DNA of 64,000 nt from Pontibacter vulgaris (GTDB taxonomy: Bacteria > Bacteroidota > Bacteroidia > Cytophagales > Hymenobacteraceae). The translations under genes were made by a program, and so were the position numbers. Shown in pieces: positions 1-64,000 of the stretch (its first letter is position 1; each line of letters opens with the position of its first letter). A model generated the notes under the pieces. The model did not search any database. It was not told the DNA's origin and saw nothing but the letters and a program-made list of their open reading frames with translations. The stretch is from the NCBI RefSeq assembly GCF_022758145.1, contig NZ_JAJVDH010000005.1, forward strand, positions 186,001 to 250,000. Direction: 5' to 3'.

Positions 1-927
1 CTGCTCAACGGGTTTGCTGCCAATGGCTCGTACTATTTTAGCACCGAAGGCGAGCAGCTCATACTTGCTGTTAATAATGGTGGCGCCATCCACAGCAGTA
101 AGTCCGGCAGTGCTGTCAATTTCCTGGCGAAGGGCGGTCTGCCATATACTTTCCCTTTTAGCATCTTCGTGTTGCCTTATCAGGTCTGCCAGCCCCGGAA
201 ATGGCGGAACTACGGGGTAGGAGATAGGATGAACAATAGAACCGGGCCAGGAGGTAGAGCCTTCAGGCACTACAAGCAACGAGCCGCCATGCCCGTGTGC
301 CCGCATCGAAACGGCCATCTGTACAAGTATATTTACTGAATAGTCCCAGGTGCTGGGTGAGGTGAAGCCAAGTAGCGAGGTAAGCAGTTGCGGGCAGTCT
401 GGCAAACTGGCGCTGCCTTCATCCACAATTTTTACCTGGTCGCCTTTAAGTACAGCCACATTGGCAAATTTGCCGAAACCATCACGGCGGCGGTGTTTTA
501 TAACCAGCAATCCCGGCTCCGAAACATCCACTACAAAACAAAAACTTCTTATCTCGCGGGTAGTGCCCCACAAGTATAATTCATCGCCATCATGCCAAAC
601 CCCCAAATGTATACCCGGCCGCTCTACGCCAGGTGCAAGCTTGGTAAGTACTGTTGGGGAAAGCGGGAGTCGCTTCTGAAATAACAAGGGTTGCCCGCTT
701 TGCTCAGGTGGGAGGAAAGCAAGTGAAATTCTTGGGGAGCGGCCTTCTTCGCGCCTGAGGCTGGCCCAGAAGGCGGTATCAATTACAGCTTCAATAATAC
801 GCTTTGGCGGTGCACTTGCCAGCTCCTGCTCGCCTTGCTGATGGGCTGCATTAATATGGCGTGCAAAATGTGCCTCAACGGTTTCTGCCACTGCGCGTGC
901 AGCCTGGTAAGTTGGTTCGCCGATCAT
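1..927 (-). CDS. Partial DAC-like sensor-domain protein (DACNV-like), C-terminus beyond window
   Basis: The reading frame opens with ATG at 927 and stays open for 309 codons to the left edge, so the 3' end is missing. The protein begins MIGEPTYQAARAVAETVEAH. Around residues 215-230 it carries HGHGGSLLVVPEG, which resembles the conserved glycine-rich core of DisA-N (diadenylate cyclase-like) domains, in particular the divergent DACNV sensor class. That assignment is from memory of the motif, and the protein could be an uncharacterised relative. There is no signal peptide or membrane segment in the visible part, so it is probably cytosolic. The oxidoreductase gene upstream on the same strand ends 46 bases before this start, so the two may be co-transcribed. 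Without the C-terminus I cannot say whether an effector domain follows. Confidence 0.72.
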   Translation of the reverse strand, partial: MIGEPTYQAARAVAETVEAHFARHINAAHQQGEQELASAPPKRIIEAVIDTAFWASLRREEGRSPRISLAFLPPEQSGQPLLFQKRLPLSPTVLTKLAPGVERPGIHLGVWHDGDELYLWGTTREIRSFCFVVDVSEPGLLVIKHRRRDGFGKFANVAVLKGDQVKIVDEGSASLPDCPQLLTSLLGFTSPSTWDYSVNILVQMAVSMRAHGHGGSLLVVPEGSTSWPGSIVHPISYPVVPPFPGLADLIRQHEDAKRESIWQTALRQEIDSTAGLTAVDGATIINSKYELLAFGAKIVRAIGSKPVEQ

Positions 928-973
928 GATACTCCTTTTGTCGCGGTAAAAAGCTTTTAGTTTATACTTGTGC

Positions 974-1999
974 TTACTCAACTTTTTTGAACATCTCAGA
1001 AATGATCTCATACGAATGCACCCGGGCAGCATGGTCGTAAATAGTAGAAGTTACCATCAGCTCATCTACCTGCGTCTCATCCAGAAATGCTTGTAACCCT
1101 TTTTTAACTGTTTCGGGGCTGCCTATAAACGAGTAGCGCAGCATCTGGTGCACGGCATATTTCTCTGACCCATCCCATTCCAGGTCGTCGAGGGTAGCAA
1201 CGGGCGGTTGCATTTGTCTGGCTGTACCGCGTACCACGTTCAGGAAAGAAGCATACATGGTGGTGGCAAGTCGGTTGGCTTCTTCGTCGGTATCTGCGGC
1301 AATAACGTTCACGCAGGCCATGGCATAAGGTGCTTTCTGCTTTTCTGATGGCTTAAAGGTGTCGCGGTATACTTTAAGCGCCATTAGCAGACTTGCCGGT
1401 GCAAAGTGGCTGGCAAACGCATACGGAAAGCCAAGTATAGCAGCCAGTTGCGCGCCATACGTGCTGGAGCCTAATAACCACATGGGCACCTGTAGCCCTT
1501 CGCCCGGTACGGCACGAACCCGTGCTGTCGGGTCTGCGGGGGCAAAGTAATGCTGGATTTCCTGCACGTTCTGCGGAAACTCTTCTACGCTGCCATGCAG
1601 GTCGCGGCGCAATGCCATCGATGTAACCTGGTCGGTGCCGGGTGCGCGGCCCAGGCCTAAATCTATCCTCTCCGGATATAAAGACTCCAGCGTGCCAAAT
1701 TGCTCGGCTACTACCAGCGGCGCATGGTTGGGGAGCATAATACCACCAGAGCCTACGCGTATTTTTTTAGTGCCTCCGGCCACGTAGCCAATTAAAACTG
1801 CAGTGGCAGAGCTGGCAATGCCAGCCATGTTGTGGTGTTCGGCCATCCAATAACGTTTCAGGCCCAGGCGCTCGGCATTTTGTGCCAGGTCTAATGTGTT
1901 CTTAAACGAATCAGCAACAGTTTTGCCGGCCAGTATCGGCACCAGGTCCAGCACCGACAACGGAATATCAGACAGTTTTTTAGCAGTAGTTGCCATCAT
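974..1999 (-). CDS. LLM-class flavin-dependent oxidoreductase (luciferase-like monooxygenase)
   Basis: A 341-residue TIM-barrel protein of the bacterial luciferase-like family. These enzymes use reduced FMN, or F420 in other branches, to oxidise small substrates. Family hallmarks are visible: [10 protein letters not shown] near the N-terminus, [10 protein letters not shown] at about 50, [13 protein letters not shown] at about 83, and [14 protein letters not shown] at about 111. This is the usual pattern of the single-subunit MsnO8-like group. The start is either of two adjacent ATG codons, at 1999 or 1996. The substrate cannot be predicted. It lies 46 bp upstream of the partial DAC-like gene and is separated from the gene behind it by a hairpin at 2068-2106. 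Confidence 0.9.
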
Positions 2000-2065
2000 A
2001 AAGTATAAGCTAATTAATTTCCGGATTAGGTTATATACCCAGAAACCGGGTAGGGGTTATATAAA

Positions 2066-2108
2066 ACACGGGATGATCAGAAAGTATAACCTCTGATCAT
2101 CCCGTAGT
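2066..2108 (-). terminator. Hairpin terminator behind the MBL hydrolase gene
   Basis: A perfect inverted repeat of about 14 bases (ACGGGATGATCAGA and its complement) encloses a short loop. The loop contains the AAGTATA heptamer. Read on the minus strand, the stem is followed by GTTTTATAT, so it fits a weak intrinsic terminator for the gene ending at 2141. Confidence 0.7.
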
Positions 2109-2140
2109 AATTTGTTTTGCTGTAAACCTACAGCGCTATT

Positions 2141-2902: not shown

Positions 2903-3023
2903 AGTTATAATGTTTTATAGTGAACAGGTAATGCATGCATATGTTCAGCAGCAGGTATATTTATACTTAAACTATAGCTGTAAGCGATGTAAAGTATGGC
3001 GTTCTGGTGCCGGAAAGTATAAA

Positions 3024-3321: not shown

Positions 3322-4308
3322 CTATTCAGAATACTTCCGGAAAAACTCTACCAGATCATCGTTAATTTTCAGATCGGTGCCGTGGCCAATGTTTTGGTAC
3401 GTTCTGAAATCGGCTTGCACACCACTTTTTAAGTATACTTTCTCGACAAACTGCCAGCGTTGCGGCACAAGCTGCCTGCCCATTAACCTGTAAACAATTT
3501 CACGGTCTTCCTGGCTGTAGGCATCGTCAAAAGCTACGGCATCGTTATCGTCTAAAGCACCCATGTACAGTATTTTAGGTAGGTTGCTGAATGCTTTCAT
3601 GTTAACAGGCTTACCTGTTATCTGCTGTAAATCGGCTATACCTAAAGGGTAGTTAAGTGGCTGGCCTTCTATCTCGGAAACAGGTAAAATTGGCATGGCG
3701 TTAATGCCGCCGGAGGCTGTTGCCTGTATAAGTTCCGGGTGAAGTATGGAGAACCTGTTGGCAAATGTGCCGGATGCCGAGAAGCCGGTAATAAAGAATT
3801 TTTCTTTTAGCGGATAGCCCTGTTTTGCCAACTGCTTTCTGGCATCCCCGATCATGGCCAGCAGTTGCAGGTCCAGCCTTTCTATGTCAGATCCCTTGCT
3901 TAAAATTACGTCTCTGTCCAGGGCATGGGTATAGTATTGCCAGTTGGTTTCTGATCTCGGGAAAATGGGAATCAGTAATGGTATCTGTAGTTTTTTGGAA
4001 ACATAGTTTGCTACCCCGCTTTTGCTGGCGGCATACCTGGCTCCCCGTTCATGAAACTCGATGGAATCATTAAGGCCGGAGTTATTCGTTTCTACCATCA
4101 GGTAGTTCTGGCTTTGGCTTTTTGTCCCTTTGGGCAAGTAAACAAGGTATGCAAAGTTAAAGCCGGCTGCAGGTCTGGCTTCAAACTTCATCAGCGTATC
4201 TGTGGCTCGTACTTGTGGCAGTGCAACAACAGCGCTTTCAGTCTTTTTCAGGTTAGAGCTGCAGCCAAAAAGTATGGGAATAACGAGTAAGTATACCAGT
4301 GCTTTCAT
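3322..4308 (-). CDS. Lipoprotein with alpha/beta-hydrolase fold
   Basis: A 328-residue protein with a lipobox ([18 protein letters not shown]), so probably anchored in the outer membrane or facing the periplasm. The nucleophile elbow is GFSASG (about residue 172), followed by [11 protein letters not shown] late HGTDLK motif offers the likely catalytic histidine, giving a serine hydrolase or esterase of the PHB-depolymerase-like type. The substrate is unknown. It starts 12 bases downstream of the small membrane-protein gene ending at 4320, so it may be expressed from the upstream group of cassette-like genes. It contains two overlapping heptamer copies near its 5'-distal half (about 3430). Confidence 0.78.
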
Positions 4309-4319
4309 GCGGGTATGGG

Positions 4320-5559: not shown

Positions 5560-6018
5560 TTAATTCCAATCATACCAATAATGTCGTCCTAAGCCTAAGT
5601 CGCTAAATAGATATAGGTGTCCTGCCATCAGCAAAGGGAAAATTATTATCGATATACTCTTTTCAGTCCAATTCGTCTTTTTATTTCTTACTATTCCAAC
5701 AACAGTCAGTATATAACTTGGTATAAGACCCATAAACAACATTAAATGTAACCACCCAAGTCCCTGTCTGTCGTGAGTTCCCCCAGAGTAGAGCTTAAGC
5801 CCAACATCGTGGAAAATTATAAGCCCTAAAATTGCCAGAGTAATAAAGATTGGTTTTAAGTCTTTTGTCCCGAATACAATTAATACTGTCGCAATAATCA
5901 AAGCGACTGGTGTAAGCATTATTCCTGTTGGAGCGAAGAAATGCCCAAGTAGAAGGTTTAGTATTATTACCCCTGTTGCTATTGAAATTGATTTTATGTC
6001 TGCCATTTTATCTGCCAT
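5560..6018 (-). CDS. Small membrane protein, unknown function
   Basis: A 152-residue, AT-rich gene beginning MADKMADIKSISIATG; the second methionine (6006) is an equally possible start. About five hydrophobic segments are visible, with conserved-looking HDVGLKLYSGGTHDRQGLGW and GRHYWYDWN motifs. I recognise no family with certainty. The longer frame to 6069 runs into the attC-like dyad at 6031-6084 and is probably artificial. It contains no AAGTATA heptamer, in line with a foreign origin. Confidence 0.65.
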   Translation of the reverse strand: MADKMADIKSISIATGVIILNLLLGHFFAPTGIMLTPVALIIATVLIVFGTKDLKPIFITLAILGLIIFHDVGLKLYSGGTHDRQGLGWLHLMLFMGLIPSYILTVVGIVRNKKTNWTEKSISIIIFPLLMAGHLYLFSDLGLGRHYWYDWN

Positions 6019-6030
6019 TTTAAATGTACC

Positions 6031-6084
6031 ACAACTATAGGATAAACAAAAACATACGTTTATCTGCATTATGTACGGAGTAAG
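6031..6084 (-). other. attC-like imperfect dyad (site E)
   Basis: The perfect stem GATAAAC/GTTTATC encloses AAAAACATAC, with less perfect outer pairing and a GTTGTGG end next to the gene. About 47 bases are closely similar to the dyad at 20834-20890 upstream of a lipoprotein gene, for example ACATACG(T/C)TTATCTGCA(T/C)TATGTACG. Two unrelated genes thus share the same 5' flank, as expected for cassettes. Confidence 0.55.
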
Positions 6085-6354
6085 TTAAGGTTGTTTATGT
6101 AAGTATAAAGTATAGTCTGAGAGCTGATTACAGGCTATACTTATGCAAACATATTAGTAATACAATATACTAAACAGAATTGATATTGCCGCACTCTGTG
6201 GTTATTTAGAAACAATAAAATAAGAGTAGAAGAAAAGCAGTTTTTTTAAGTGTTTAGAAGGTTATTTATTATTGCTTTGCCATTTCGAATTGCACTAAAC
6301 CAATTAAAGTATAAAATCTAAACTTTCAAGTTCAGCTGTGGCGGCACTTTTATC

Positions 6355-6394
6355 CGTTTATAAACGCTTATACACGTTTATAAGCGTTTAATAA
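6355..6394. repeat. Two 20-base direct repeats containing palindromes
   Basis: CGTTTATAAACG (6355-6366) is a perfect 12-base palindrome. The unit CGTTTATAA(A/G)CG(C/T)TTA recurs with a 20-base period at 6375, and the two units also pair with each other (CGCTTATA with TATAAGCG). The two-turn spacing suggests an operator or protein-binding array. The words resemble the stems of the attC-like sites at 6031 and 20834. Confidence 0.55.
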
Positions 6395-6514
6395 CACCTT
6401 TTTTTAAAATTGACTATGGTTGTAATGAGCTGATTATAAGTTTTTAATGAAGTAGTGGTAACTGGTTGCGGATCTTTTGTATACAGATAAACAGCAAATT
6501 TGAATTTTTTAAAG

Positions 6515-6556
6515 TAAAACGCCCTGCCACTTTTCAGTAGCAGGGCGTTTTTGTAA
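6515..6556 (-). terminator. Intrinsic terminator of pgk
   Basis: The stem AAACGCCCTGC/GCAGGGCGTTT has a short loop and T/A tracts on both sides. It sits 18 bases downstream of the pgk stop codon on the minus strand. Confidence 0.85.
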
Positions 6557-6573
6557 GTATAGCTAACTATAGA

Positions 6574-7773
6574 TTAGTAATCGTCGCGCTCGATGGCAGC
6601 TACACCTGGCAGGGTTTTGCCCTCCATATACTCGAGCAGTGCACCACCACCCGTAGATACATACGATACACGGTCGGCGTAGCCAAACTTGTTAACGGCT
6701 GCAGCCGAGTCGCCGCCGCCAATAAGCGAGTAAGCACCAAGGCGGGTTGCATCTACAACGGCATCAGCAATGGCTTCGGTACCAACCGAGAAGTTAGACA
6801 TCTCGAACACACCCATCGGGCCGTTCCAAAGTATAGTTTTAGAGTTACGGATCACATCGGCGTATTGCTCACGGGCTTCAGGCCCAATGTCAAGGCCCAT
6901 CCAAAGAGGTTTAATGTGGTGGCTCAGGCTGATGTCTATATTGGCATCGTTGCTGAATGCATCGGCTACAACCGAGTCTACTGGAATCATCAGGTTAACA
7001 CCTTTTTCGCGGGCCATCGCAATAAGGCGGGCAGCCAGGTCCACTTTATCAGCCTCCAGCAACGAGGCCCCGATTTCGCCCCCATCAGCCTTCACAAAAG
7101 TATAAGACATACCGCCGCCAATGATCAGGTTATCCACCTTGTCCATCAGTCGCTCTATGATCATGATCTTATCAGAAATTTTAGCACCACCCATAATAGC
7201 AGTGTAAGGGCGCTCTACATTATCAAGCACGCGGCGGGCATTATCGAGCTCGGCCTGCATTACATAACCCATTACCTTATCTTTAGGGAAGTAGCGCGCG
7301 ATTACGGCTGTAGAAGCATGCTCGCGGTGCGCGGTGCCGAAGGCATCGTTCACATACACGTCGCCAAGTTGGGCCAGTTTTTCAGCAAAGGCAGCATCGC
7401 CTTTTTCTTCTTCTTTGTAGAAACGCAGGTTCTCAAGCAGCAGGATCTCGCCTGGTTGCAGGTTCCGGGCCAGTTCCAGGGCTTCGTCGCCAATGCAGTC
7501 AGCGGCAAAATGCACGGTAGTGTTAAACTCTTCAGAAAGACGGTTTACCAGGTGCTTCAGCGAGTATTTCTCTTCAGGGCCTGTTTTAGGGCGGCCCAGG
7601 TGCGACATCAAAATAACAGCACCTCCATCCTGAAGGATCTTGTTGATAGTAGGCACGGCCGCACGAATGCGGGTGTCGTCGGTGATGTGGTATTCTGCGT
7701 CCAGAGGTACGTTGAAATCTACACGCACAAGCGCCTTTTTACCGGCAAAATTATACTCGTCTACAGTTCTCAT
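6574..7773 (-). CDS. pgk: Phosphoglycerate kinase
   Basis: A 399-residue enzyme transferring phosphate from 1,3-bisphosphoglycerate to ADP in glycolysis (and the reverse in gluconeogenesis), in the cytosol. Signatures are [14 protein letters not shown] near the N-terminus, SHLGRPK, the hinge region [19 protein letters not shown], and the nucleotide loop [13 protein letters not shown] near the C-terminus. The length is normal. The start is ATG at 7773 ([13 protein letters not shown]); a frame extended to 7839 exists but family proteins begin at MRTVDEYNF. It stands alone with a strong terminator downstream. Confidence 0.97.
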
Positions 7774-7927
7774 GAAGTATGTTATAGTTTGGATTCGGAT
7801 ACTCGTTGTTCGTGTTTCCGCCGATTTTGTTGCTGGCAATTTAGCGGTTGAGCAAATATAGTAAAATGACTATGATTTACGGGAGAATCGGGGAGGAGTT
7901 ATAGTTTGGGGTTAGTTTGTAGGATTA

Positions 7928-7968
7928 CCTCACCCTAACCCTTTCCTAAAAACAGGAGAGGGGATTTG
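7928..7968. repeat. Short extragenic palindrome
   Basis: CCTCACCCTAACCCTTTCCT, a short A-rich loop, then AGGAGAGGGGA form a hairpin. Words of this type are common as dispersed intergenic palindromes in many bacterial genomes. I see only this copy in the window. Confidence 0.4.
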
Positions 7969-8127
7969 GCCATTGGGTATACTTCAAGTATTAGTTCTAT
8001 AGCTGCAGTGGTCCAACCACCCCCAGCCCCTCAGAGCTATGCTCGCTGGTTTCAAACTCGCGTTCTCACTAGTCTAAGAAGGTGAGTTTGGAGGTTCTTC
8101 GCAAACGGTAAGCATCAATTTTAACTT

Positions 8128-8568
8128 CTATGCTTTGATTAAGCTTTCGCCTCGCCGGCTGGGCCTCACTTTTCTCCTTGATGAGAAAGTCTAAAAGGGG
8201 CCCCTGCACCCCTGTAAGCAAAAGAATCAAGACAATTCGTTTATCGAGGGCCCCTACCCCCACTCGCTGAACGCTCAAACATCGAATCGTCTTGGGTGCA
8301 CTTGGAAAAGCTATTGCTTTATAGGTCAAGTATAACACCCCTGTAGTCCCCTCAAGGGAACAGTGGTTTCAGTAGTACTAGCGTTTGCTATCGAAATTGT
8401 ACCCAGTCCTTGGGTTGAGCGCCTTGTGAGATCCGGTGCCCGTTAAGGGCAGCCGCAGCGCAGCGGAGGCAGGAGGGAACACAGCGCGATGCCCGAGGAC
8501 GAGCCCTCGCGGGCTAGGAGCGAGCCAAAGCAACTATAAAACAGTAGGCAAGTAGAGCTCCAAGGATT
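8128..8568 (-). repeat. Dispersed repeat, copy 1 (inverted relative to 63446-63855)
   Basis: The complement of this segment matches 63446-63855 over most of its length: the blocks around GCTTTGGCTCGCTCC, CCCGCGAGGGCTCGTCCTCG, GCGCTCAACCCAAGGACTGG, AAGTGCACCCAAGACGATTC and GCCCAGCCGGCGAGGCGAAA are nearly identical. A central part (about 8340-8400) differs. Two GC-rich hairpins, GCCCGxGAGG../CCTCGGGC and TGCCC..GGGCA, are kept while their loops differ between copies. A small open frame (8069-8338) crosses it, but I do not call it a gene. No transposase is present. Confidence 0.8.
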
Positions 8569-8792
8569 GAAAGTAGCTATGAAAGTATAGCCTGCAAGCC
8601 ACAATCTAAAGCTTCAACGATAGAACATATAAGATTTCTCGACTATCGCTCGAAATGACAGAATACCAATTATCAACAGAAGTATACAGCTAGTCAGCTA
8701 ATAAACTTCATCAACAATAATTGTTACCTACATTAGTTAAAAACCAAAAACAACTCCTAACTTTTAACCCTTAACTTTAACCTCCAATTTGT

Positions 8793-8800
8793 TACCTTTG
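8793..8800 (+). promoter_or_regulatory. Putative Bacteroidota -7 box of the ligase gene
   Basis: TACCTTTG matches the TAnnTTTG consensus of the Bacteroidota housekeeping sigma factor and ends five bases before the ATG at 8806, implying a very short leader. A clear -33 TTTG partner at the ideal spacing is not evident. Confidence 0.5.
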
Positions 8801-8805
8801 CAACA

Positions 8806-11508
8806 ATGAGAGTAGGAATAATTTTCGGTGGACCATCACGTGAGCGCGAGATTTCGTTTGCGGGTGGGCGTACGGTTTACGATAACTTAGACAAAGCGCT
8901 TTTTGAGGCCGTTCCTGTATTTGTGGACAGCCTGGGTAATTTTATACTGCTGGACTGGCAGTTTATTTACAAAGGCACCATCCGGGATTTTTATCCGCCG
9001 GTAGCGGCTTTGCCCGAAACCCAGCACGGACTGCAGATTTACCTGGAGTCGTTGGGCGAGCTAAGCATAGAAGAACAGGACAGGATTATTAACAAAGCCG
9101 GTAAGCGCCTGCAGCCTAACGAGTTTAAGGAGCATTTCGATTTTGCTTTCCTGACACTGCATGGCCCTTATGGCGAAGATGGCAGCATCCAGGGCTTGCT
9201 GGAGTGGTACCACATTCCGTATTCCGGCTCTGGTATACTTCCGTCGGCGATAGGTATAGACAAGGCAGCGCAGAAAGAAATGCTGAAACAGCATGGCTTC
9301 CCGACCCCGGATTACAGAACCATAAGCTATACCGAATGGACAGATAAGCAGAACCGGCCGCAGTTGTTGCAAAACCTGGTAGCTCAACTTGGTTTGCCAC
9401 TCGTGCTAAAGGCGCCGCACCAGGGTTCTTCCATCGGTATTTCCATACTTAAGGATAATGATTTTGCAGCTTTTGAAGCCGGCGTAGACCGCAGCTTCTT
9501 TACCAAAACCATTTACAAGAGCCAGTGGCTGGCGCTTGGCGAAGAGAAGCAGCTGGTGAGCATGAAGCAGTTGGTCGATATTCGCGAAGGGATTGGTATG
9601 CCGGTATTAGTGGATGGCGGCGAGATCATCTATCATCCGGAGCAGCTTTTCAACTACATCAACCATACTTTTAATGCCAGCGCTACCGACAGCATTACGC
9701 TTACCAATGTAGAGCATGAGCAGCAGGTGCTGGTAGAGGCATTTATTAAAGGCCGTGAGTTCTCAAGTATAGTAGTGCAGGACGAAACCGGCAAACCGAT
9801 TGCCCTGCCTCCAACTGAGATCGTGAAAGGCAGCGAAGTATTCGACTATCGTTCTAAATACCTGCCGGGCCTTAGCCGCAAAATAACACCGATAAACCTG
9901 CCAAGCGAAGAGATTCAGCGCATACGCGAAGCCACCAGTAAGTTATTTACTGCTTTTGGTTTCAACGTGTATGCCCGCCTGGATGGCTTTATTACAGATA
10001 GCGGCGAGATATTCCTGAACGACCCGAACACTACCTCAGGTATGTTGCCATCGTCGTTCTTCTTCCACCAGGCTGCTGAAATCGGGCTGAACCCGTCTCA
10101 GTTTCTGACTTATATTATCCGCACCTCAATTGCTGAGCGACTGAAATCCGGAAAGGACACTGTTAAGCTTACCCGGTTGCTGCAGAAGCTGGATGCAAGT
10201 ATAAAAGAAGAGCAGGCTCACCGCCACGATAAAATCCGTGTGGGTGTGATCATGGGTGGCTATTCTTCAGAGCGACATATATCCGTGGAAAGTGGCCGTA
10301 ACATTTACGAAAAGCTTTCTTCCTCAACCAAATATGAGCCGCTGCCAATCTTCCTGACGGGCAGCAACGAAGAGCACCGTTTGTATTCTATTCCGATCAA
10401 CATTATGCTGAAGGATAATGCAGACGATATTAAAGAGAAGGTTTTATACTTTGAGCAGGGCGGCAAACCGCACCCGGTGCTGGAGCAGATTGCAAAAGAG
10501 GCTGAAAGTATAACACGCAAGTATACCGGCCGCAGCCTGCAGGAGCCGCAGCGCATTACCTATTCGCAGCTTAAGAATATGGTGGATGCCGTGTTTATTG
10601 CACTGCACGGTCGTCCGGGCGAAGATGGTGCTTTGCAAACCGAGCTCGAAAAACTTCACATTCCTTACAACGGCTCTGGCATCCGTTCGTCTCAGATCAC
10701 AATAAACAAGTATGAGACAAATGAGATTCTGGCCAAGCACGGCGTACCGGTTGCAAAACACCGCATGGCCTGGAAAGAAGACTGGCAAAAAGACAAAGAA
10801 GCGTTTTTCCAGAGTTTAGAAGCAGAGTTCCCTTACCCGTTTATTGCAAAGCCTGCCGATGATGGCTGTAGCTCTGCCGTGAAAAAGATAAAAAACCGCG
10901 CTGAACTGGATGCCTTTGCGACGCTTATTTTCCGGGAGATGGAGGAGCTGGACACAGAATGTGCCCGTACTTTATCGCTTGGTTTTAAAGAAGAATTCCC
11001 GAACAAGCAGGGCTTCCTGGTAGAAACTCTGATCTCGAGAAACGGTGCCAAACACTTTCTGGAAATTACAGGCGGTTTACTTACCAAGTATGGCCCGGAT
11101 GATAGCGTGAGTTACGAAGTGTTTGAAGCTTCGGAAGCACTGGCTGAAGGCGAAGTTTTATCGTTGGAAGAAAAATTCCTGGCAGGCGAGGGGCAGAATA
11201 TTACACCGGCACGTTATGCCACAGACCCGGAGCGCCGCCAGAAAATATCTGATAAGGTAAAAGAAGACCTCAAGCACGTAGCCAACATCCTGAACATTGA
11301 AGGCTATGCCCGTATAGATGCTTTTGTGCGCGTGCTGGAGAACGATGAGGTAGAAACGATCATCATAGAGGTGAACTCGTTGCCAGGTATGACGCCTGCC
11401 ACCTGTATTTTCCACCAGACGGCTATCAACGGGTACAAACCATATGATTTCATCGATCGCATTCTTACCTATGGTATCAAGCGCAATAAGATGAAAGCGA
11501 CAATATAG
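8806..11508 (+). CDS. Tandem double D-alanine--D-alanine ligase
   Basis: A 900-residue protein containing two complete Ddl/ATP-grasp modules, about residues 1-470 and 474-900; single Ddl enzymes are about 310-370 residues. Module 1 starts RVGIIFGGPSREREISF, module 2 KIRVGVIMGGYSSERHISV. Both have the HGxxGEDGxxQ loop (TLHGPYGEDGSIQ; ALHGRPGEDGALQ) and the YSGSG/YNGSG motif. Module 2 keeps the Mg-binding ending IIEVNSLPGMTP with ARIDAF; module 1 has ARLDGF but FLNDPNTTSGML, so the usual Glu is replaced by Asp and LPGMT is lost. Ddl makes D-Ala-D-Ala for peptidoglycan in the cytosol. I infer that module 2 is the canonical catalyst and module 1 is divergent, perhaps with altered substrate or a regulatory role. 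The PASTA gene follows 140 bases downstream. Confidence 0.9.
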   Translation: MRVGIIFGGPSREREISFAGGRTVYDNLDKALFEAVPVFVDSLGNFILLDWQFIYKGTIRDFYPPVAALPETQHGLQIYLESLGELSIEEQDRIINKAGKRLQPNEFKEHFDFAFLTLHGPYGEDGSIQGLLEWYHIPYSGSGILPSAIGIDKAAQKEMLKQHGFPTPDYRTISYTEWTDKQNRPQLLQNLVAQLGLPLVLKAPHQGSSIGISILKDNDFAAFEAGVDRSFFTKTIYKSQWLALGEEKQLVSMKQLVDIREGIGMPVLVDGGEIIYHPEQLFNYINHTFNASATDSITLTNVEHEQQVLVEAFIKGREFSSIVVQDETGKPIALPPTEIVKGSEVFDYRSKYLPGLSRKITPINLPSEEIQRIREATSKLFTAFGFNVYARLDGFITDSGEIFLNDPNTTSGMLPSSFFFHQAAEIGLNPSQFLTYIIRTSIAERLKSGKDTVKLTRLLQKLDASIKEEQAHRHDKIRVGVIMGGYSSERHISVESGRNIYEKLSSSTKYEPLPIFLTGSNEEHRLYSIPINIMLKDNADDIKEKVLYFEQGGKPHPVLEQIAKEAESITRKYTGRSLQEPQRITYSQLKNMVDAVFIALHGRPGEDGALQTELEKLHIPYNGSGIRSSQITINKYETNEILAKHGVPVAKHRMAWKEDWQKDKEAFFQSLEAEFPYPFIAKPADDGCSSAVKKIKNRAELDAFATLIFREMEELDTECARTLSLGFKEEFPNKQGFLVETLISRNGAKHFLEITGGLLTKYGPDDSVSYEVFEASEALAEGEVLSLEEKFLAGEGQNITPARYATDPERRQKISDKVKEDLKHVANILNIEGYARIDAFVRVLENDEVETIIIEVNSLPGMTPATCIFHQTAINGYKPYDFIDRILTYGIKRNKMKATI

Positions 11509-24726: not shown

Positions 24727-27165
24727 GTGGCAAAAATAAGACACAACAATATCATTGATACGGTAGATTCTGTTCTTAGCGTTTCCAAAAAGAAGGGAAT
24801 TATTCATTTACATGCAGAAGATCAGGAGCTTAGTGGCCAGCATCTTACTTTAAACAGCAAAAAAGTTTTACACTTTGGCACCTGCGGCTACCTTGCTTTA
24901 GAGCATCATGCTGCAGTAAAACGTGGTGCAATAGATGCCATAGAGCGCTTTGGTACCCAATTCCCGATGTCGCGTACTTACATTTCTAACCCGCTTTACA
25001 GCGAGCTGGAAGGCCTGATTAAGCAGATGTATAATGTGCCGGCCGTTATCTCCAAGAATTGTACTTTAGCTCACCTGACAACTATACCAAGTATAATCCG
25101 CCAGTCTGACCTGATAATATTAGACCACCAGGTGCATGCCAGCGTGCAGGAGGCCGTTAAAAAACTGCTGAGCCAGGGCGTAACTGTCGAGATGATTCGC
25201 CATAATAACCTGGAAATGCTGGAAGACCGCATCAAGAAGCAAAGAAGCAAGTTTGATCGGATCTGGTATATGGCAGATAGTGTGTACTCTATGTATGGCG
25301 ATTTTGCTCCTATCAAGGATATGATTGCGCTGGCAGAAAAATATGAGCAGCTATACCTGTACGTGGATGATGCCCACGGCATGAGCTGGGCAGGCAAGCA
25401 CGGGACCGGCTATGCTATGAGCCAGATGCCTGATGGCCTTTACCGCAAAATGATACTGACAGCTAACCTGGGCAAGGCATTTGGGGCATGTGGTGGTTTG
25501 TCACTGTTCCCGAACGAGGAATGGTATAACAAGGTAAATAACTTTGGCGGTCCGCTTACATTTTCTGTGCAGATAGAGCCTGCAACATTGGGCGCAGCAA
25601 TCGCCTCTGCTAAAATACACCTCAGCAACGAGATCTATACTTACCAGGAAGAACTCCAAAAAAAGATCTCATACTTTAACAAGTTGTTGAAGCAAACCGA
25701 TTTACCTTTGGTGCACGAGTGCGAAAGCCCGATCTTTTACATCGGGACGGGCACCATGGATATGGGTAACCACCTGGTGCAGGCGCTGCTTAACGATGGC
25801 GTATACGTGAATCTGGCCACATTTCCGGCAGTGCCAGCCAAGAATATCGGCGTCAGAATTACTATCTCGCTGAGCAATTCTTATGAGGATATTGAAGAGC
25901 TCGTACGCAAACTCGATATTCATTTTAAAGAAGCCCTTATTGCCACAAACCAAACGCACGAAAACATCAGGAAAGCTTTTAAAATGCCCGCGTTAGAAAT
26001 GGTTATAGCTTCGACTAAAACTGTTGCCAGCACTGACCTGACTGTAAAGCGTTATACTTCTATTACTGAGCTAGATGCTGCTTACTGGAACAAATACCTG
26101 GGTAACCGTGGCATGTTCGATTGGAACGGCCTGAAGTTCCTGGAAGAATCTTTTAAAGATAATCCGGAGAAAGAAAGCAACTGGGGCTTCAGGTATTATA
26201 CAGTTCAGGATGCTGAAGGCAAACTGGTACTGATGACCTTTGCTATCGTAAGTCTTCTGAAAGAGGATATGTTCTCGCAGGCGTCTATTTCGAAAGCAAT
26301 TGAGAAAGAGCGTGAATCAAATCCTTATTATCTGACATCGACTGGTATTTTAATGGGCAGCCTGTTTACAGAAGGTAACCATTTATACTTAGACAGAGAA
26401 AGCCCATACTGGAAAGAGGCGCTGAAAGCACTGCTGGCTGAGCTCTACAAAGATCAGGAAACCGAAAATGCAAGCAGCATCATGATCCGTGACCTGGACG
26501 CCAACGACCCGGAATTGAATGAGTTTATGGTGGAGCAGGATTTCGTAAAGCTGGACCTGCCGGAGTCTTGTGTAGTTGAAAACCTGGACTGGATAACAGA
26601 AGATGAATACAGGCAAACGCTGACCAAGAAGGGCAGGGAAAACTTTGTGCAGAAGATAAAGCGATATGAGCATTACTATGATGTACAAGTAAAGAACCGC
26701 CTCTCAGCCGAAGAATTACAATATGCTGTTTCGTTGTTTAAGAATGTTAAAAGCAACAACTTTGCAATCAATAACTTCCTTTATCCCGATAAGCTCTTTA
26801 GCCTGCTAAACGAGAACAATGCCTGGGAATTTGTTGTGCTTTATTTAAAGGAGGAACACTCCCTGAACAGGAAGCCGGTATCGGTTGCCTTTTGCCACAA
26901 GAACGCCAGCAATGTGTACAACTTCATGTTAATAGGTATGGATTATGAGTACCTGCTGGAGTACAACGTATACAGGCAAACCCTTTACCAGGTAATTAAA
27001 AGAGGCCATGCCCTGGGCAGTAAAAAGATAAACTTCGGCATTTCTGCCACTATGGAGAAGAAAAAGGTAGGCGCCACACCATATCCTAAAGTTGGTTATT
27101 ACCAGGCAAAAGACAACTTCGCTATGGAAATGATGGGAGCTACCTTTGCAATTGAAAGAGAATAA
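24727..27165 (+). CDS. Fusion of AONS/serine-palmitoyltransferase-like PLP enzyme with GNAT-like acyltransferase
   Basis: An 812-residue cytosolic protein. Residues about 35-405 are an alpha-oxoamine synthase: HFGTCGYLALEHH, STxTYISNPLYSELE region, YVDDAHGMSWAG (Asp for the pyridine nitrogen), and the PLP lysine K250 in ANLGKAFGACGG. The family condenses an amino acid with an acyl-CoA, as in sphingolipid or biotin synthesis. Residues about 430-812 carry two GNAT/FemAB-like folds (NWGFRYYTVQDAEGKLVLM; SVAFCHKNASNVYNFMLIG). NCBI-type annotations name such proteins bifunctional aminotransferase/N-acetyltransferase. I infer synthesis of an acylated amino-ketone lipid. The histidine kinase gene starts 36 bases downstream, and a STAS-like gene is divergent, suggesting a regulated module. 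Confidence 0.85.
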   Translation: MAKIRHNNIIDTVDSVLSVSKKKGIIHLHAEDQELSGQHLTLNSKKVLHFGTCGYLALEHHAAVKRGAIDAIERFGTQFPMSRTYISNPLYSELEGLIKQMYNVPAVISKNCTLAHLTTIPSIIRQSDLIILDHQVHASVQEAVKKLLSQGVTVEMIRHNNLEMLEDRIKKQRSKFDRIWYMADSVYSMYGDFAPIKDMIALAEKYEQLYLYVDDAHGMSWAGKHGTGYAMSQMPDGLYRKMILTANLGKAFGACGGLSLFPNEEWYNKVNNFGGPLTFSVQIEPATLGAAIASAKIHLSNEIYTYQEELQKKISYFNKLLKQTDLPLVHECESPIFYIGTGTMDMGNHLVQALLNDGVYVNLATFPAVPAKNIGVRITISLSNSYEDIEELVRKLDIHFKEALIATNQTHENIRKAFKMPALEMVIASTKTVASTDLTVKRYTSITELDAAYWNKYLGNRGMFDWNGLKFLEESFKDNPEKESNWGFRYYTVQDAEGKLVLMTFAIVSLLKEDMFSQASISKAIEKERESNPYYLTSTGILMGSLFTEGNHLYLDRESPYWKEALKALLAELYKDQETENASSIMIRDLDANDPELNEFMVEQDFVKLDLPESCVVENLDWITEDEYRQTLTKKGRENFVQKIKRYEHYYDVQVKNRLSAEELQYAVSLFKNVKSNNFAINNFLYPDKLFSLLNENNAWEFVVLYLKEEHSLNRKPVSVAFCHKNASNVYNFMLIGMDYEYLLEYNVYRQTLYQVIKRGHALGSKKINFGISATMEKKKVGATPYPKVGYYQAKDNFAMEMMGATFAIERE

Positions 27166-31886: not shown

Positions 31887-32338
31887 AGTTTTGGTAGCAT
31901 AGTTTATCGGGTATTCCGATCGTATTTTATTAGTCATTTTATTAAAGCTTTGGCAAATCTTTATGCTTGAGTATACAAAGTAAAGTCGCATTTTCGAGCT
32001 AATAAAACAGATTATACCAAAACATAGCATTTCTATATGAATAGGCCGATGAAACCGATGAGCAGTTGGTAGGTGTATTAAGGGGATTGATCGGAAACTT
32101 TGCGATAGCAGCCCGCAGAAGTATAAATTAAGTAGCTGCATTAAGTTTAGGCTTACCTGTCAGCTCTGTTTAGCTCTCGTTTCAGGAGGCGTTTAAACCG
32201 GAATTTGGAAGCGGGGGTTCAGTATGAATGAAAATTTAGAATATAAAAAAATCAGGTTGGGGGATTTCGTGTTTTATACTTGCCGGATATGATTTTGCAC
32301 TGTGATTTATACTTTATACTTTCGCAAAAAAGACGGAT
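31887..32338. other. Divergent promoter region between receptor and OsmC genes
   Basis: A 450-base, AT-rich spacer with no gene. It holds four heptamers, two in tandem next to the OsmC start (32308-32322, TTTATACTTTATACTTTCG). A possible -7 box overlaps that tandem (TACTTTCG, one mismatch from TAnnTTTG). Confidence 0.5.
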
Positions 32339-38350: not shown

Positions 38351-38501
38351 AGTAAAGTACTTTGAGTTTCAAAGTTAATAATGCTTTACGTAAAGTCAAG
38401 TGCAATGGATAAAATATTTTAAAAGTCTATACTTTATACTTTTGATCAATAACCCAATAGCTCTACTATAGTTAGTATACTGGAAACCTAGCTTAAGATT
38501 T

Positions 38502-53263: not shown

Positions 53264-53482
53264 ATGCCAACAGGGAAGTATATCGTTATTATCGGGGTAG
53301 TTATAGTTGTAATTGGCCTGGTGGTTTGGCTGGCAGGCGACAAGCTTAGCTGGTTTGGCCACCTGCCCGGCGATATCAGGGTAGAGCGTAAGAACATGCG
53401 GTTTTATGCGCCCATTACAAGTATGTTGCTGCTAAGTATACTTTTTTCGCTATTGCTCTGGGTGTTCCGGCGGTTTTTTTAG
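53264..53482 (+). CDS. DUF2905 family small membrane protein
   Basis: A 72-residue protein with GKYIVIIGVVIVVIGLVVWL and a second membrane segment; the LSWFGHLPGDIRVERKNMRF motif between them is characteristic of DUF2905. Role unknown. Confidence 0.9.
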   Translation: MPTGKYIVIIGVVIVVIGLVVWLAGDKLSWFGHLPGDIRVERKNMRFYAPITSMLLLSILFSLLLWVFRRFF

Positions 53483-60985: not shown

Positions 60986-62152
60986 TTACTCTACCAGTAC
61001 ATGCTCCCTTTCGCCGCGCTCAAAACCATACACATCTTCCCTGAACTGCACCCGCATGTTATCATCAACCCAGGCAGTCTGGTAAGCAATAAGTAAAGGC
61101 ATGGATTTTTTTACCCTGATGTAATGATCCGGAATACCATCAGTCTTAAATTTTGCGATCATTTTATCTGAATAACCAGACCTGTGTTTTAGGAGGTAAT
61201 CAGCAAGCGCCATAGGTTGCTCCAGACGTATGCAGCCATGGCTGAAAGAGCGGTTATCATACTTAAACAGATCTTTATCCGGGGTATCATGCAGGTATTG
61301 GTTTACATTTGTTTTGAAAAGGAATTTAATTCTTCCGAGCTCATTTATACTTCCGGGCCGCTGCACAATTTTATAGTTAAAGGTATCTTCTGTTACTTTC
61401 TTCCAGTTAACGCGCCAGGGGTTGGTTCTTACAAAACCAGTTGGTGAGGGCTGGAAAAGCTGCATGCGTTTCTTGTATAAATAGCCGGGGTTACGCTTTA
61501 AAATAGGTAATATTTCTTTGGCTGCTATAGAGCGGGGTATATTCCAGGATGGGTTAAAAACCACGGTAGTCATTTCGCTTTTTACTACCCGCGTCTGATG
61601 ATCCTTTTTGCCCACAATTACACGCATTTTTAGCACGGTCTTGTTGCTGTCAATTACCTGCAAAGTATAATCCGGAATATTTACAAGAAGGTAGGGTTGC
61701 TTCAGGTTGTGGGTAGCTGCTATCCAGTCGTCGTAACTGCACTTCAATTGCTCAAGGCGCTGTTCGGGTGTTATATTGAGAGCTGCAATAGTTTTCGGTC
61801 CGATAATTCCGTCGGCCTTTAAAGCATGCCGCTCCTGGAACCGGCGCACAGCCCGCGTTATTTCGTTTGTAAAAGCTGGTTGTTGGGTGGCATTGTCTAA
61901 ACTAAGGTCGCCGGTTTGCAACAGATTCTCCTGCAACGGAAGAATATACCGGCTGGTATCGCCGGATTGCAGTTTCAGGTTTACAGGAAAAGTGTGCCAG
62001 TTATTCGTATCTACAAGTCGCTGATAAAGAAACAATGCCTGTTGCATGCGCTCTTTCTGAGCAATATAAACAGAAACTTTCCCGGCCACATCCTGCGCCT
62101 GTACAGCCGGAATTACCGGCAGCAACCATAAAAGCATTAAAATGCGATACAT
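60986..62152 (-). CDS. Secreted L,D-transpeptidase (YcbB-like, short form)
   Basis: A 388-residue protein starting MYRILMLLWLLPVIPAVQAQ (signal peptide). A peptidoglycan-binding domain (NEITRAVRRFQERHALKADG, IIGPKTIAALN) precedes the YkuD catalytic domain with SHGCIRLEQP (catalytic Cys and His). E. coli YcbB is about 615 residues; here the extra N-terminal domain is absent. It forms 3-3 peptidoglycan cross-links in the periplasm. Confidence 0.93.
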   Translation of the reverse strand: MYRILMLLWLLPVIPAVQAQDVAGKVSVYIAQKERMQQALFLYQRLVDTNNWHTFPVNLKLQSGDTSRYILPLQENLLQTGDLSLDNATQQPAFTNEITRAVRRFQERHALKADGIIGPKTIAALNITPEQRLEQLKCSYDDWIAATHNLKQPYLLVNIPDYTLQVIDSNKTVLKMRVIVGKKDHQTRVVKSEMTTVVFNPSWNIPRSIAAKEILPILKRNPGYLYKKRMQLFQPSPTGFVRTNPWRVNWKKVTEDTFNYKIVQRPGSINELGRIKFLFKTNVNQYLHDTPDKDLFKYDNRSFSHGCIRLEQPMALADYLLKHRSGYSDKMIAKFKTDGIPDHYIRVKKSMPLLIAYQTAWVDDNMRVQFREDVYGFERGEREHVLVE

Positions 62153-62669
62153 AGCAGAGAGTGTAAACAACAGTTTCTTTTACTACGCAAAATATGGACG
62201 CATGACGGGGCTTACAGCAAGCCAAACCTCTTAAACTAAAACAAAACCTGCAGCTGCTAAGTTTGCCTTCTTAAGAAAAGGGGTAAGCTTGATTTTTGCT
62301 GTAGCTTTATAAGTATAAATTAGCAGGAAGATTGAGCTACTTAGGGTCTAGTTTTGCATAAAGTATGTAGGTTACTGTTCGTACTTTAAGTTATATTGGA
62401 AGTATACTTTCGGGCTGCTCTGGCCTGAACAAGAATGCAGAAGCCAATTGCCAAAACGTTAAAAGCTACACATAGGTAAGCGGATTCTTTAATCGAAATT
62501 GAGTCCTGAAAAGCTGCAGGAAAGCGAGCTGACTGGAGCAGGTTGATTACAAAAAGAAACGAACAATGCAACCGAACCCAAAGTATACAAAGCTAACCTG
62601 ATTGCTATTAAAACAAGTATATGCCTACCGGCAACCAGAATATAAAATAATTGATAAGCAAAAAGCTAC
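62153..62669. other. Noncoding spacer
   Basis: About 515 bases between divergent genes. Five heptamer copies occur, including a perfect AAGTATACTT palindrome at about 62401. No gene is supported; a 61-codon frame at 62386-62571 has no family character. Confidence 0.55.
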
Positions 62670-63350
62670 ATGGCTGCAACTATAGATAAAGCTACCCTCC
62701 GTTTTTTAACCGACCTGAAGCAGAACAATAACCGCGAATGGTTTAATGAAAATAAAAAGCAGTACGACGCTGCCCGCAAAAACTACATCGCTTTCCTGGA
62801 TGAGATGCTGAAACAGATGCAGGACTTTGAACCAGTTGCTTACGGGCAGCAAGGCAAAGACCTGGTATTCCGCATTTACCGCGATGTGCGTTTCTCCAAC
62901 GACAAGCGCCCTTATAAAGACCATTTTGGAGCTTATATAGCGGAAGGAGGCCGGAAATCTATACTTCCGGGCTACTACCTGCACCTGGCCAGCGGCAATA
63001 ACTCTTTTGTAGCCGGCGGGCTTTGGATGCCACCAGCCGATCAACTAAAAGCCGTACGCCAGGAAATTGATTACAGCCTTGATGAGTTTGAAAGTATACT
63101 TCAGAAGCCGGAGTTTAAAACCAGGTTTGGAAATATATCAGGGGAACAGCTTAAAACCACACCCAAAGGCTATGAAAAGGATAACCCTGCCATAGCATAC
63201 CTGCGCCACAAAAGCTGGAATGCCATTATGCCTATAGATGATAAATTGGTGTTAAGCCCTGATTTTATGAATGTAGTGTTGGATTCTTTCAAAGCTGTAA
63301 AACCATTAAATGATTTCCTGATGGCACCGTTACGGGATATTGGAGAGTAA
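62670..63350 (+). CDS. DUF2461 family protein
   Basis: A 226-residue soluble protein: NNNREWFNENKKQYDAARKN, KDLVFRIYRDVRFSNDKRPY, KDHFGAYIAEGGRKS, YYLHLASGNNSFVAGGLWMP, and GYEKDNPAIAYLRHKSWNAI make the full DUF2461 pattern (TIGR02453-like). Role unknown; cytosolic. It stands alone with no visible terminator. Confidence 0.92.
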   Translation: MAATIDKATLRFLTDLKQNNNREWFNENKKQYDAARKNYIAFLDEMLKQMQDFEPVAYGQQGKDLVFRIYRDVRFSNDKRPYKDHFGAYIAEGGRKSILPGYYLHLASGNNSFVAGGLWMPPADQLKAVRQEIDYSLDEFESILQKPEFKTRFGNISGEQLKTTPKGYEKDNPAIAYLRHKSWNAIMPIDDKLVLSPDFMNVVLDSFKAVKPLNDFLMAPLRDIGE

Positions 63351-64000
63351 CTCGGATATTGTTTCGACACTAGGAGAAATCTGGTATAGTTTCATAGCTG
63401 AGGTTTATACTGGCTTTAATTAAGCTATACTTCCATAGTTATCTCTAATCCTGGGAGCTTTACTTGCCTGCTGTTTTATAGTTGCTTTGGCTCGCTCCAA
63501 GCCCGCGAGGGCTCGTCCTCGGGCATCGCGCTGTCTATTGAAGCTGCTCCTCGCCCCGCTGCGGGCTGCCCTTGCGGGCACCGCAACAATAGAAGGCGCT
63601 CAACCCAAGGACTGGAAAGGACACTTCTTCGCAGGCGGTTATGCAACAGGAACTACAAAGCAATAGCTTTTCGAAGTGCACCCAAGACGATTCGATGTTT
63701 GAGCGTTCAACGAGTGGGGGGAGGGGCCCTCGATAAACGAATTGTCTTGATTCTTTTGCTTACAGGGGTGCAGGGGCCCCTTTTAGACTTTCTCATCAAA
63801 GAGAAAAGTGAGGCCCAGCCGGCGAGGCGAAAAGCCTGATCAAAGCCTAGAAGATAAATGTTAAACAGAATATTTACAAAGAACAGTTGAGCTCCCCGCC
63901 TTGGATAAGGAGGGGTTGGGGGTGGTTGGACTACGGCAACTATAAGCAAGACACTCGCAGGAGCTGTGTATACTGCAAGGTCTCTGTTTTAGCTGATTTA
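63351..64000. other. Noncoding right end with repeat copy 2
   Basis: The stretch contains one heptamer, the dispersed repeat copy 2 (63446-63855) and a GGGGTTGGGGGTGGTTGGAC word (63914-63933) that recurs, in complement, at 8011-8030. A 640-base tract with no gene. Confidence 0.6.
63446..63855 (+). repeat. Dispersed repeat, copy 2 (inverted relative to 8128-8568)
   Basis: It is the reverse-oriented counterpart of copy 1. Matching blocks run from ATCCTGGGAGCTTTACTTGC on the left to GATCAAAGCCTAGAAG on the right, with one divergent block in the centre. The stem TGCCC..GGGCA and the CCCGCGAGGG hairpin are retained. Confidence 0.8.

What the first reader, a model, noticed from the sequence alone, without database searches (positions are those of the whole stretch)
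1..64000. Heptamer AAGTATA/TATACTT is very strongly over-represented across coding and noncoding DNA
Seen: a hand count gives about 185 copies on both strands combined (likely accurate to a few per cent), roughly one per 345 bases, against about 10 expected from base composition. The sister word AAGTATG/CATACTT was met only about 30 times in the same reading. It occurs in genes in several frames (AGT-ATA = Ser-Ile, ATA-CTT = Ile-Leu, AAG-TAT-A = Lys-Tyr, TAT-ACT-T = Tyr-Thr), often using the rare codon ATA, so it is selected at the DNA level. Both orientations occur in similar abundance. Known precedents with this pattern are DNA-uptake words in Neisseria/Pasteurellaceae and architecture-imparting words. 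I know of no description in this group. The resemblance to the -7 promoter box (TATACTTTTG) does not explain copies inside genes on both strands.
Basis: partly seen in the sequence, partly recalled or inferred. Interest (0 to 1): 0.85.

Follow-up and report, generated by a model that had tools for sequence, protein, structure and literature searches.

The report
Dialect DNA words saturating Pontibacter chromosomes
Bacteria of the genus Pontibacter carry thousands of copies of a seven-letter DNA word whose spelling differs between branches of the genus, a pattern like the 'own-DNA' tags that some bacteria use when taking up DNA, but here with no sign of the pilus motor that serves such tags elsewhere.

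Summary
AAGTATA occurs 187 times in the window (12.4 expected) and 10,614 times in the 4.19-Mb genome (reversed control 499). The organism is a Pontibacter. Of 50 genomes of the genus, 20 are rich in AAGTATA, 12 in AGGTATA, 4 in AACTATA, 3 in both AAGTATA and AACTATA; two have weaker relatives (ATATATAA, GGTATAA); in 9 no word was seen in the part examined. All spellings share TATA and follow the ComEC tree. In five of six well-sampled word-rich genomes 43-49% of coding places where the protein permits the word hold it (sixth: 34%; three poorer species together 20%), against 2-10% in three word-less species and 4-8% on plasmids of word-rich species. Codon shuffling removes 84% of coding copies. 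Where the window's genome has AAGTATA and an AGGTATA-species protein permits that spelling, 52 of 64 aligned instances hold it. An integrase-bearing island is word-poor; no strand polarity in 464 kb. Best explanation: a self-DNA exchange word with dialects, accumulated by molecular drive. Two features of known uptake words (pilus motor, hairpin pairs) were not met, uptake is untested, and the reader protein is unknown.

The parts
1..64000 (.). 187 copies of the heptamer AAGTATA (90 on +, 97 on -), mean spacing 340 b, median 234 b, spacing CV 1.07
3431..3440 (.). overlapping dyad AAGTATACTT; others at 21291-21300, 23054-23063, 53434-53443, 62400-62409, 63092-63101
   Evidence: six pairs at offset 3; 21 dyads in 464 kb
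6101..6114 (+). head-to-tail pair of words at 7-base spacing
   Evidence: same-strand spacings 7 (15 pairs) and 14 (10 pairs) stand out by eye in 464 kb, no null computed
32308..32321 (-). head-to-tail pair at 7-base spacing on the - strand; another at 38428-38441
5560..6069 (-). ORF without any word although 8 places would permit it; no Pfam family at E 1e-5
24727..27165 (+). 812-aa aminotransferase-like ORF (my reading of the translation; not scanned against a library) used as locus marker to name relatives and to compare sites

Best explanation
AAGTATA is the local dialect of a self-DNA recognition word that works like the DNA uptake sequences of Neisseriaceae and Pasteurellaceae. A sequence-specific reader, not yet identified, favours incoming or recombining DNA that carries the word. 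Homologous replacement then copies word-bearing alleles into the chromosome, so words pile up wherever proteins and codon use tolerate them (molecular drive). Shown here: over-representation, high occupancy of permitted places, dialects by clade, in-place switching, conservation beyond protein need, depletion on sampled plasmids and an island, absence of strand polarity in 464 kb. Inferred: that the driving step is DNA uptake or transformation, and that one reader exists. Because no type IV pilus motor was found, the uptake route would have to be a different one, perhaps involving proteins outside the known uptake families, as reported for transformation in Riemerella.
For: Dialects: AAGTATA 4,114-11,818 copies in 20 genomes; AGGTATA 5,748-9,303 in the 9 of 12 counted genome-wide, the other 3 called from loci; AACTATA 12,524-13,168 in 4; three mixed genomes whose two words are interspersed at random in the one locus tested per genome. 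In the ComEC tree of 49 genomes the 11 AGG rows are one side of a 99* branch, the AAC and mixed rows together one side of a 100* branch, and the seven states need 9 changes against 26.0 shuffled. In all three dialects position 7 tolerates G (4.7, 13.5, 6.9-fold), T is the rarest eighth base (2.9, 1.6, 2.8-fold) and changes within TAT reach at most 4.0-fold, against 26.7, 37.0 and 40.2-fold for the full words. Occupancy of permitted coding places: 0.436, 0.426 (AAG), 0.432, 0.433 (AGG), 0.489, 0.338 (AAC) against 0.02-0.10 in three word-less species. Plasmids of three AAG species: 26/312, 8/174, 10/228 against 43/219 in 20-kb chromosome samples of the same species; plasmid identity by 100% match of 20 kb and equal record length. 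Integrase island G000:C5:145-171 kb: 10 of 86 (my sum, limits chosen after seeing the table; integrase). In-place switch: 52/64 and 18/20 aligned instances. Words at identical amino acids among AGG species: 86 of 97 pair-sites kept against 0.37-0.44 background.
Against: PF00437 secretion/pilus ATPase: matches in 50 of 50 genomes, but only as fragments of at most 66 of 370 positions, 3 barely over the cut-off, so the known uptake motor was not found. ComEC and DprA are in 50 of 50, word-less species included, so competence genes do not track the word. Three word-bearing genomes have an interrupted comEC (G009, G018, G022) and two of them an interrupted dprA (G009, G022). No hairpin-spaced inverted pairs stood out in 464 kb, unlike DUS. 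No transformation of a Pontibacter turned up in the papers searched (one paper holds both terms, once each, not read). Plasmids and islands may simply be too young. Word-less species still show 1.3- to 4.0-fold AAGTATA over the reversed word (my ratios).
Confidence: 0.5

Rival explanations
1. The words are binding sites of an abundant chromosomal protein (nucleoid, segregation or repair) and are kept by direct selection; dialects follow changes in that protein's DNA-binding surface.
For: Strong conservation of sites, spread close to random beyond 100 b (pair correlation 0.93-1.18), dialects with a shared core, clade structure.
Against: Ten thousand individually selected sites that change letters in place would be costly (inference). 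No strand polarity (254/270 in negative-skew and 333/359 in mostly positive-skew DNA, summed), so not an orienting (KOPS-like) word. Dipeptide use shifts with the dialect. In nine genomes no word was seen.
Confidence: 0.25
2. A methylation-linked repair process makes the word, as proposed for the HIP palindromes of cyanobacteria.
For: HIPs are also highly iterated, are replaced by alternates in some species and sit near one per kb (PMC4390886, abstract and section 18 part 1).
Against: The word is not a palindrome. One methylase family tested, PF01555, is present in 31 of 50 genomes and in 0 of the 4 pure AACTATA genomes and several AAG and AGG ones. Plasmids in the same cells are poor in the word. 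Other methylase families were not tested.
Confidence: 0.1
3. Chi-like recombination hotspot read by AddAB/RecBCD.
For: Species-specific short words linked to recombination are known (recalled).
Against: Chi words are recalled to be biased to one replication strand; here orientation is equal in DNA of both skews, and the density is far higher than I recall for Chi.
Confidence: 0.05
4. Promoter -7 boxes, codon bias or amino-acid composition.
For: The word resembles part of the Bacteroidota -7 box (recalled). Density in the 200 b before starts is 4-8/kb, above the 0.7-1.8/kb found on the stop side beyond 125 b.
Against: Codon shuffle 139.6 against 868; the densest place is the first 25 b after stops (12.1/kb); most copies are in ORFs; the same kind of places are written with a different word in each dialect.
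Confidence: 0.02

Closest known systems
DNA uptake sequence (DUS) dialects of Neisseriaceae
   Same: Thousands of copies in genes and gaps; clade-bound dialects with an invariant core; a genome with two dialects; overlapping dyads; family members without a word; similar top density (PMC3630211, sections 6 and 11)
   Different: Pontibacter has a 7-8 b word instead of a 10-mer; no pilus motor found; inverted pairs do not stand out; uptake untested; phylum Bacteroidota
Uptake signal sequence (USS) of Pasteurellaceae
   Same: Short asymmetric word spread over coding and non-coding DNA (recalled)
   Different: Word unrelated; the USS receptor is predicted to be a type IV minor pilin (PMC12616744, search listing only), and no pilus motor was found here
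HIP1 and alternate HIPs of cyanobacteria
   Same: Highly iterated word, replaced by alternates in some genomes (PMC4390886, abstract)
   Different: HIPs are palindromic and tied to cognate methylases (same abstract); here asymmetric, and the one methylase family tested does not track it
Own-DNA preference of Riemerella columbina (Bacteroidota)
   Same: A Bacteroidota species that prefers its own DNA in a competition experiment (PMC7965970, section 16)
   Different: The frequent k-mers listed there are A-rich; no dialect word was shown

Membership tests
DUS/USS uptake words | over-represented short word on both strands in genes and gaps | tested here: met
DUS/USS uptake words | dialects that follow phylogeny with an invariant core | tested here: met
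DUS/USS uptake words | poor in foreign or mobile DNA (feature recalled; PMC7371117 seen in listing only) | tested here: met
   three plasmids, two of them sampled in part; one island; one plasmid stretch (L166) is as rich as the chromosome
DUS/USS uptake words | inverted pairs forming terminator hairpins | tested here: not met
   no preferred inverted spacing up to 60 b apart from the offset-3 dyad, although words crowd just after stop codons
DUS/USS uptake words | type IV pilus machinery that takes up the DNA | tested here: not met
   PF00437 only as fragments of at most 66 of 370 positions in 50 of 50 genomes; other pilus families not searched
DUS/USS uptake words | word raises DNA uptake or transformation | not testable with these tools
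   needs an experiment
HIP | palindrome | tested here: not met
   AAGTATA is asymmetric; only 42 of 1,216 copies in 464 kb lie in the dyad AAGTATACTT (21 dyads)
HIP | cognate methylase co-occurs | tested here: inconclusive
   PF01555 does not track it; other methylase families not tested
Chi / KOPS | strand polarity with replication | tested here: not met
   464 kb on two contigs of opposite skew; whole-chromosome polarity not tested

The most novel reading that the evidence does not exclude
Pontibacter runs a type IV-pilus-independent, sequence-specific DNA exchange system with an unknown reader. At least three strong dialects, and perhaps five, have each rewritten a third to a half of the permissible coding places in word-rich species and have left marks on protein dipeptides, making the genus a natural series for watching a genome-wide recognition code change.
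Probability: 0.42. Interest if true: 0.93.

Novelty: new variant of a known kind. Interest (0 to 1): 0.86.

Why it matters
No uptake-type dialect word in Bacteroidota turned up in my searches. If it is not uptake, ten thousand coordinated, switchable sites per chromosome would need another cause, which would be stranger still. It also matters for practice: codon use, dipeptide statistics and gene-origin tests in these genomes are shaped by the word.

Tried and rejected
Promoter boxes as the whole cause: densest place is after stops, most copies in ORFs. Terminator hairpins: no preferred inverted spacing except the overlapping dyad. Chi or KOPS polarity: none in 464 kb. Competence genes as correlates: ComEC 50/50, DprA 50/50, and DUF5689 (a domain of one transformation-essential protein in Riemerella, PMC8459023 section 19) 22/50, found and missing in both word-rich and word-less genomes. 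Methylase family PF01555: 31/50, no relation seen. Markov-5 null: uninformative because sub-words carry the signal. Block import as the source of mixed dialects: not supported in one locus per genome (runs test P 0.13, 0.50, 0.50). The unique-column cross-dialect test on 22-kb loci had only 21 columns (4 of 13 AAG columns held AGG in the other dialect, 2 held AAG); the larger ortholog test was used for the main claim, and its instances come from several species and are not independent. Word keeping between AAG species (68-77% DNA identity) was 0 to 67% on 1 to 20 words a pair, with several zeros.

Outside the genus AAGTATA is at most about 2.5-fold over the reversed word in 150 genomes of five other genera of the family, 1.8-fold in 22 other genomes of the order and about 1.5-fold in 295 other genomes of the phylum sample, a few of them already in the earlier sets. 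AGGTATA was looked at outside the genus only in the 22 (at most about 2.4-fold), and AACTATA not at all.

Full report
Observation. The count is right: 90 + 97 = 187 copies of AAGTATA/TATACTT in 64 kb, 15 times the base-composition expectation, first of all 7-mers. AAGTATG, -C and -T occur 33, 7 and 11 times. In the whole genome (4.19 Mb, 36 contigs) there are 5200 + 5414 copies against 246 + 253 for the reversed word. Flanks add little: A is preferred just before the word (0.389) and T is avoided just after it (0.062) in 1,216 copies. So the unit is about AAGTATA[A/G/C].

Not codons. In 384 ORFs found in 464 kb of this genome (window included) the word occurs 868 times; shuffling synonymous codons within genes gives 139.6 (125-162 over 20 shuffles). 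All three frames in both orientations are raised over the shuffle. Of six dipeptides checked, Lys-Tyr is written AAG-TAT 261 of 406 times (75.2 expected if codons were independent), Ile-Leu ATA-CTT 351 of 900 (61.3), Ser-Ile AGT-ATA 182 of 626 (33.8), Tyr-Thr TAT-ACT 221 of 467 (67.4), Leu-Tyr TTA-TAC 105 of 512 (38.0). Val-Tyr GTA-TAT is below expectation (38 of 363, 80.6), which fits the avoided T after the word. ATA is 35% of Ile codons. Density is 5.32/kb outside ORFs against 2.15/kb inside. In 25-base bins it is 12.1, 6.6, 7.8, 3.9, 3.4, 0.7, 0.8, 1.1/kb downstream of stops and 4.0-8.2/kb in the 200 b upstream of starts. Spacing is near random beyond 100 b (pair correlation 0.93-1.18). 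Orientation is even in DNA of negative skew (254/270) and of mostly positive skew (333/359; sums).

Which organism, and dialects. Of 18 named loci with a relative of a window gene, 17 are Pontibacter and one is Botryobacter ruber; handles were tied to names by equal contig length. Genome-wide counts in the genus were near background in some species, and their DNA showed other words: AGGTATA, then AACTATA. Of 50 genomes of the genus, 20 are AAGTATA genomes (4,114-11,818 copies), 12 AGGTATA (9 counted genome-wide, 5,748-9,303; 3 called from loci), 4 AACTATA (12,524-13,168). Three are mixed: G027 7,552 AAG + 8,118 AAC, G033 9,116 + 6,094, G074 5,110 + 11,674. G060 has TATATAA 9 times and ATATATAA 19 times over expectation in about 79 kb, and G142 GGTATAA ten times in 40 kb. 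In 9 genomes no word was seen: samples of about 20-60 kb were read for G002, G007, G025, G026, G028, G034 and G151; G024 rests on the counts of the three words alone, and G140 on two (AGGTATA was not counted there). These nine still show 1.3- to 4.0-fold AAGTATA over the reversed word (my ratios), and G002 3.9-fold AGGTATA.

Shape of the word. Octamer enrichments are 26.7 (AAGTATAA), 37.0 (AGGTATAG) and 40.2-fold (AACTATAG) in their own dialects and 1.0-1.4-fold in the pooled DNA of four word-less species. All three tolerate G at position 7 (4.7, 13.5, 6.9-fold) and have T as rarest eighth base (2.9, 1.6, 2.8). Changes within TAT (positions 4-6) reach at most 4.0-fold (AACTACAG in AAC species). 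Positions 1-3 differ: AAG species tolerate C at 3 (6.9) and G at 2 (4.9); AGG species tolerate other first bases (3.3-5.0) but not A at 2 (1.3); AAC species tolerate G at 2 (7.5), T at 1 (4.2) and G at 3 (4.0). The window's genome is broad: 3,531 AACTATA and 2,035 AGGTATA copies, occupancies 0.231 and 0.152.

Phylogeny. On a ComEC tree of 49 of the 50 genomes (G009's interrupted copy dropped) the 11 AGG rows are one side of a 99* branch, the AAC and mixed genomes together one side of a 100* branch, AAG needs 4 changes, and the seven states together 9 against a shuffled mean of 26.0. It is a quick tree from a single protein.

Taxonomic limit. The 150 genomes of five other genera of the family reach at most about 2.5-fold over the reversed word, 22 genomes of the order 1.8-fold, and 295 other genomes of the phylum sample about 1.5-fold. 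Unrelated words elsewhere are not excluded.

Occupancy. I asked of every ORF window whether its amino acids could be written with the word at that place. Occupied fractions: G000 850/1948 = 0.436 and G013 0.426 (AAG); G010 263/609 = 0.432 and G003 0.433 (AGG); G031 425/869 = 0.489 and G018 0.338 (AAC); one 20-kb sample each of G020, G001 and G021, poorer AAG species, together 43/219 = 0.196. Three word-less species: 0.02-0.10 for the three words. In some frames 68-84% of permitted places are taken. Of 173 G000 ORFs with at least 5 permitted places, 12 have none or nearly none; Pfam was run on 10 of the 12: an ATP synthase alpha/beta subunit, an ATP-grasp CoA ligase, a DEAD helicase, an FtsX/MacB permease, a GmrSD nuclease, a phage integrase, and 4 without a family. 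The island G000:C5:145-171 kb, with the integrase and the nuclease, has 10 of 86 permitted places occupied (my sum, limits chosen after seeing it).

Plasmids. Three AAG species with two-contig assemblies have a second replicon that matches plasmid records of P. actiniarum, P. akesuensis and P. kalidii over the tested 20 kb at 100%, with equal lengths. Sampled plasmid DNA holds 40 words in 100 of 204 kb, 15 in 80 of 116 kb and 20 in all 73.8 kb, or 0.40, 0.19 and 0.27/kb against 0.82, 1.27 and 1.74/kb genome-wide (sizes rounded). Occupancy is 26/312, 8/174 and 10/228. One 20-kb piece of the P. actiniarum plasmid is as rich as the chromosome (20 words) and carries metabolic genes among others. 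A process that acts on all DNA of the cell would have to explain the depletion; recent arrival of plasmids would also do.

Conservation and in-place change. Between AGG species at 83-87% DNA identity, words are kept in 62-91% of aligned copies against 28-41% for other 7-mers. At identical amino acids, 86 of 97 word pair-sites are kept against 0.37-0.44 (seven of 28 possible pairs, sharing sites). Between AAG species the loci are more diverged (68-77%) and few: 0 to 67% kept on 1 to 20 words a pair, background 7-18%. In 325 reciprocal best pairs between sampled G000 ORFs and ORFs of other sampled species, an AAGTATA of G000 lies opposite AGGTATA in 52 and AAGTATA in 14 of 439 alignments to AGG species. 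Where the AGG protein permits AGGTATA the figure is 52 of 64, against 199 of 575 where G000 lacks the word. For AAC species AACTATA is opposite 18 and AAGTATA 17 of 199; where permitted, 18 of 20 against 163 of 338. Sites therefore can change spelling in place.

Effect on proteins. Dipeptides written by the local word are raised over independence: Thr-Ile 1.42, Tyr-Ser 1.35, Ile-Val 1.18 and Asn-Tyr 1.44 in AAC genomes (1.14-1.17, 1.00-1.14, 0.93-1.00 and 0.99-1.30 elsewhere); Lys-Tyr 1.20 in AAG genomes (0.87-0.97 elsewhere); Tyr-Thr 1.42-1.43 in AAG and AGG, both of which write it, against 1.04 and 1.14. The AGG pairs Arg-Tyr and Ile-Pro show no such rise over word-less species, and Gly-Ile a small one (1.28 against 1.08-1.19).

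Mechanism. The features fit a word under molecular drive through preferential exchange of own DNA, as for DUS: clade dialects, an invariant core, a two-dialect state, overlapping dyads, word-less relatives and comparable density are described in Neisseriaceae (PMC3630211, abstract and sections 6 and 11 read). Two features of that family are not met: the pilus/secretion ATPase family PF00437 was found only as fragments in 50 of 50 genomes, and inverted pairs do not stand out. Bacteroidota can transform with unfamiliar parts: a Riemerella screen found ComEC, DprA, ComF, RecA and four proteins without homology to known uptake machinery (PMC8459023, abstract and sections 19-20 read), and R. columbina prefers its own DNA in competition (PMC7965970, passages and section 16 read), though no dialect word was shown there; that paper also lists possible pilus- or Cts-like homologs in Flavobacterium. 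ComEC and DprA are in all 50 Pontibacter genomes, word-less ones included, so they neither support nor refute. The rival of a selected chromosomal binding site cannot be excluded by sequence. A HIP-like methylation model is weakened by plasmid depletion and, which tested one methylase family only.

Literature. AAGTATA as a text term gave 82 papers, of which the 20 listed look unrelated by title. Pontibacter with uptake sequence gave 0; Bacteroidetes with uptake sequence, over-representation and competence 0; Pontibacter with natural transformation 1 paper, on LexA, not read; uptake signal with Bacteroidetes, natural competence, genome and motif 0. Searches (6 papers; 8 of 21 listed) show no such description by title or start of abstract; a survey of abundant oligonucleotides in bacteria (PMC2843746) is among them and was not read. 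The library lacks most subscription journals.

Noticed in passing
G000:C5:145242-170888 (L052/L053): Word-poor genomic island of lower GC (0.39-0.40) with a phage-type integrase near its end and a GmrSD-type restriction nuclease.
   Followed up: partly
L163 (G022), L158 (G009), L126 (G018): comEC is interrupted in three word-bearing genomes (two frames), and dprA also in G022 and G009; G022 has the lowest word density of its nine-genome clade, G009 the second highest of the nine AGG genomes counted. Assembly error not excluded.
   Followed up: partly
L068, L147, L183, L184 (G060); L069-L070 (G142): Two further spellings around a TATA core, ATATATAA and GGTATAA, at lower enrichment.
   Followed up: partly
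L071-L072 (G061, another genus of the family): TTAAAAA/TTTAAAA-type and TCCGGAA/ATCCGGA words are 5-9 fold over base composition in 40 kb; not examined.
   Followed up: no
G000, 464 kb sampled: Same-strand word pairs at 7 and 14 bases (15 and 10 pairs; 42 bases 9 pairs) and dyads AAGTATACTT (21; 42 of 174 AAGTATAC copies) stand out by eye; no null computed.
   Followed up: partly
L205:20000-40000 (P. actiniarum plasmid): One plasmid stretch is as word-rich as the chromosome (20 in 20 kb, L166) and carries metabolic genes, as if taken from a chromosome.
   Followed up: partly
window 12485-14296: 603-aa secreted-looking protein with a C-terminal tail that resembles a type IX sorting domain (read from the translation; not scanned).
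   Followed up: no
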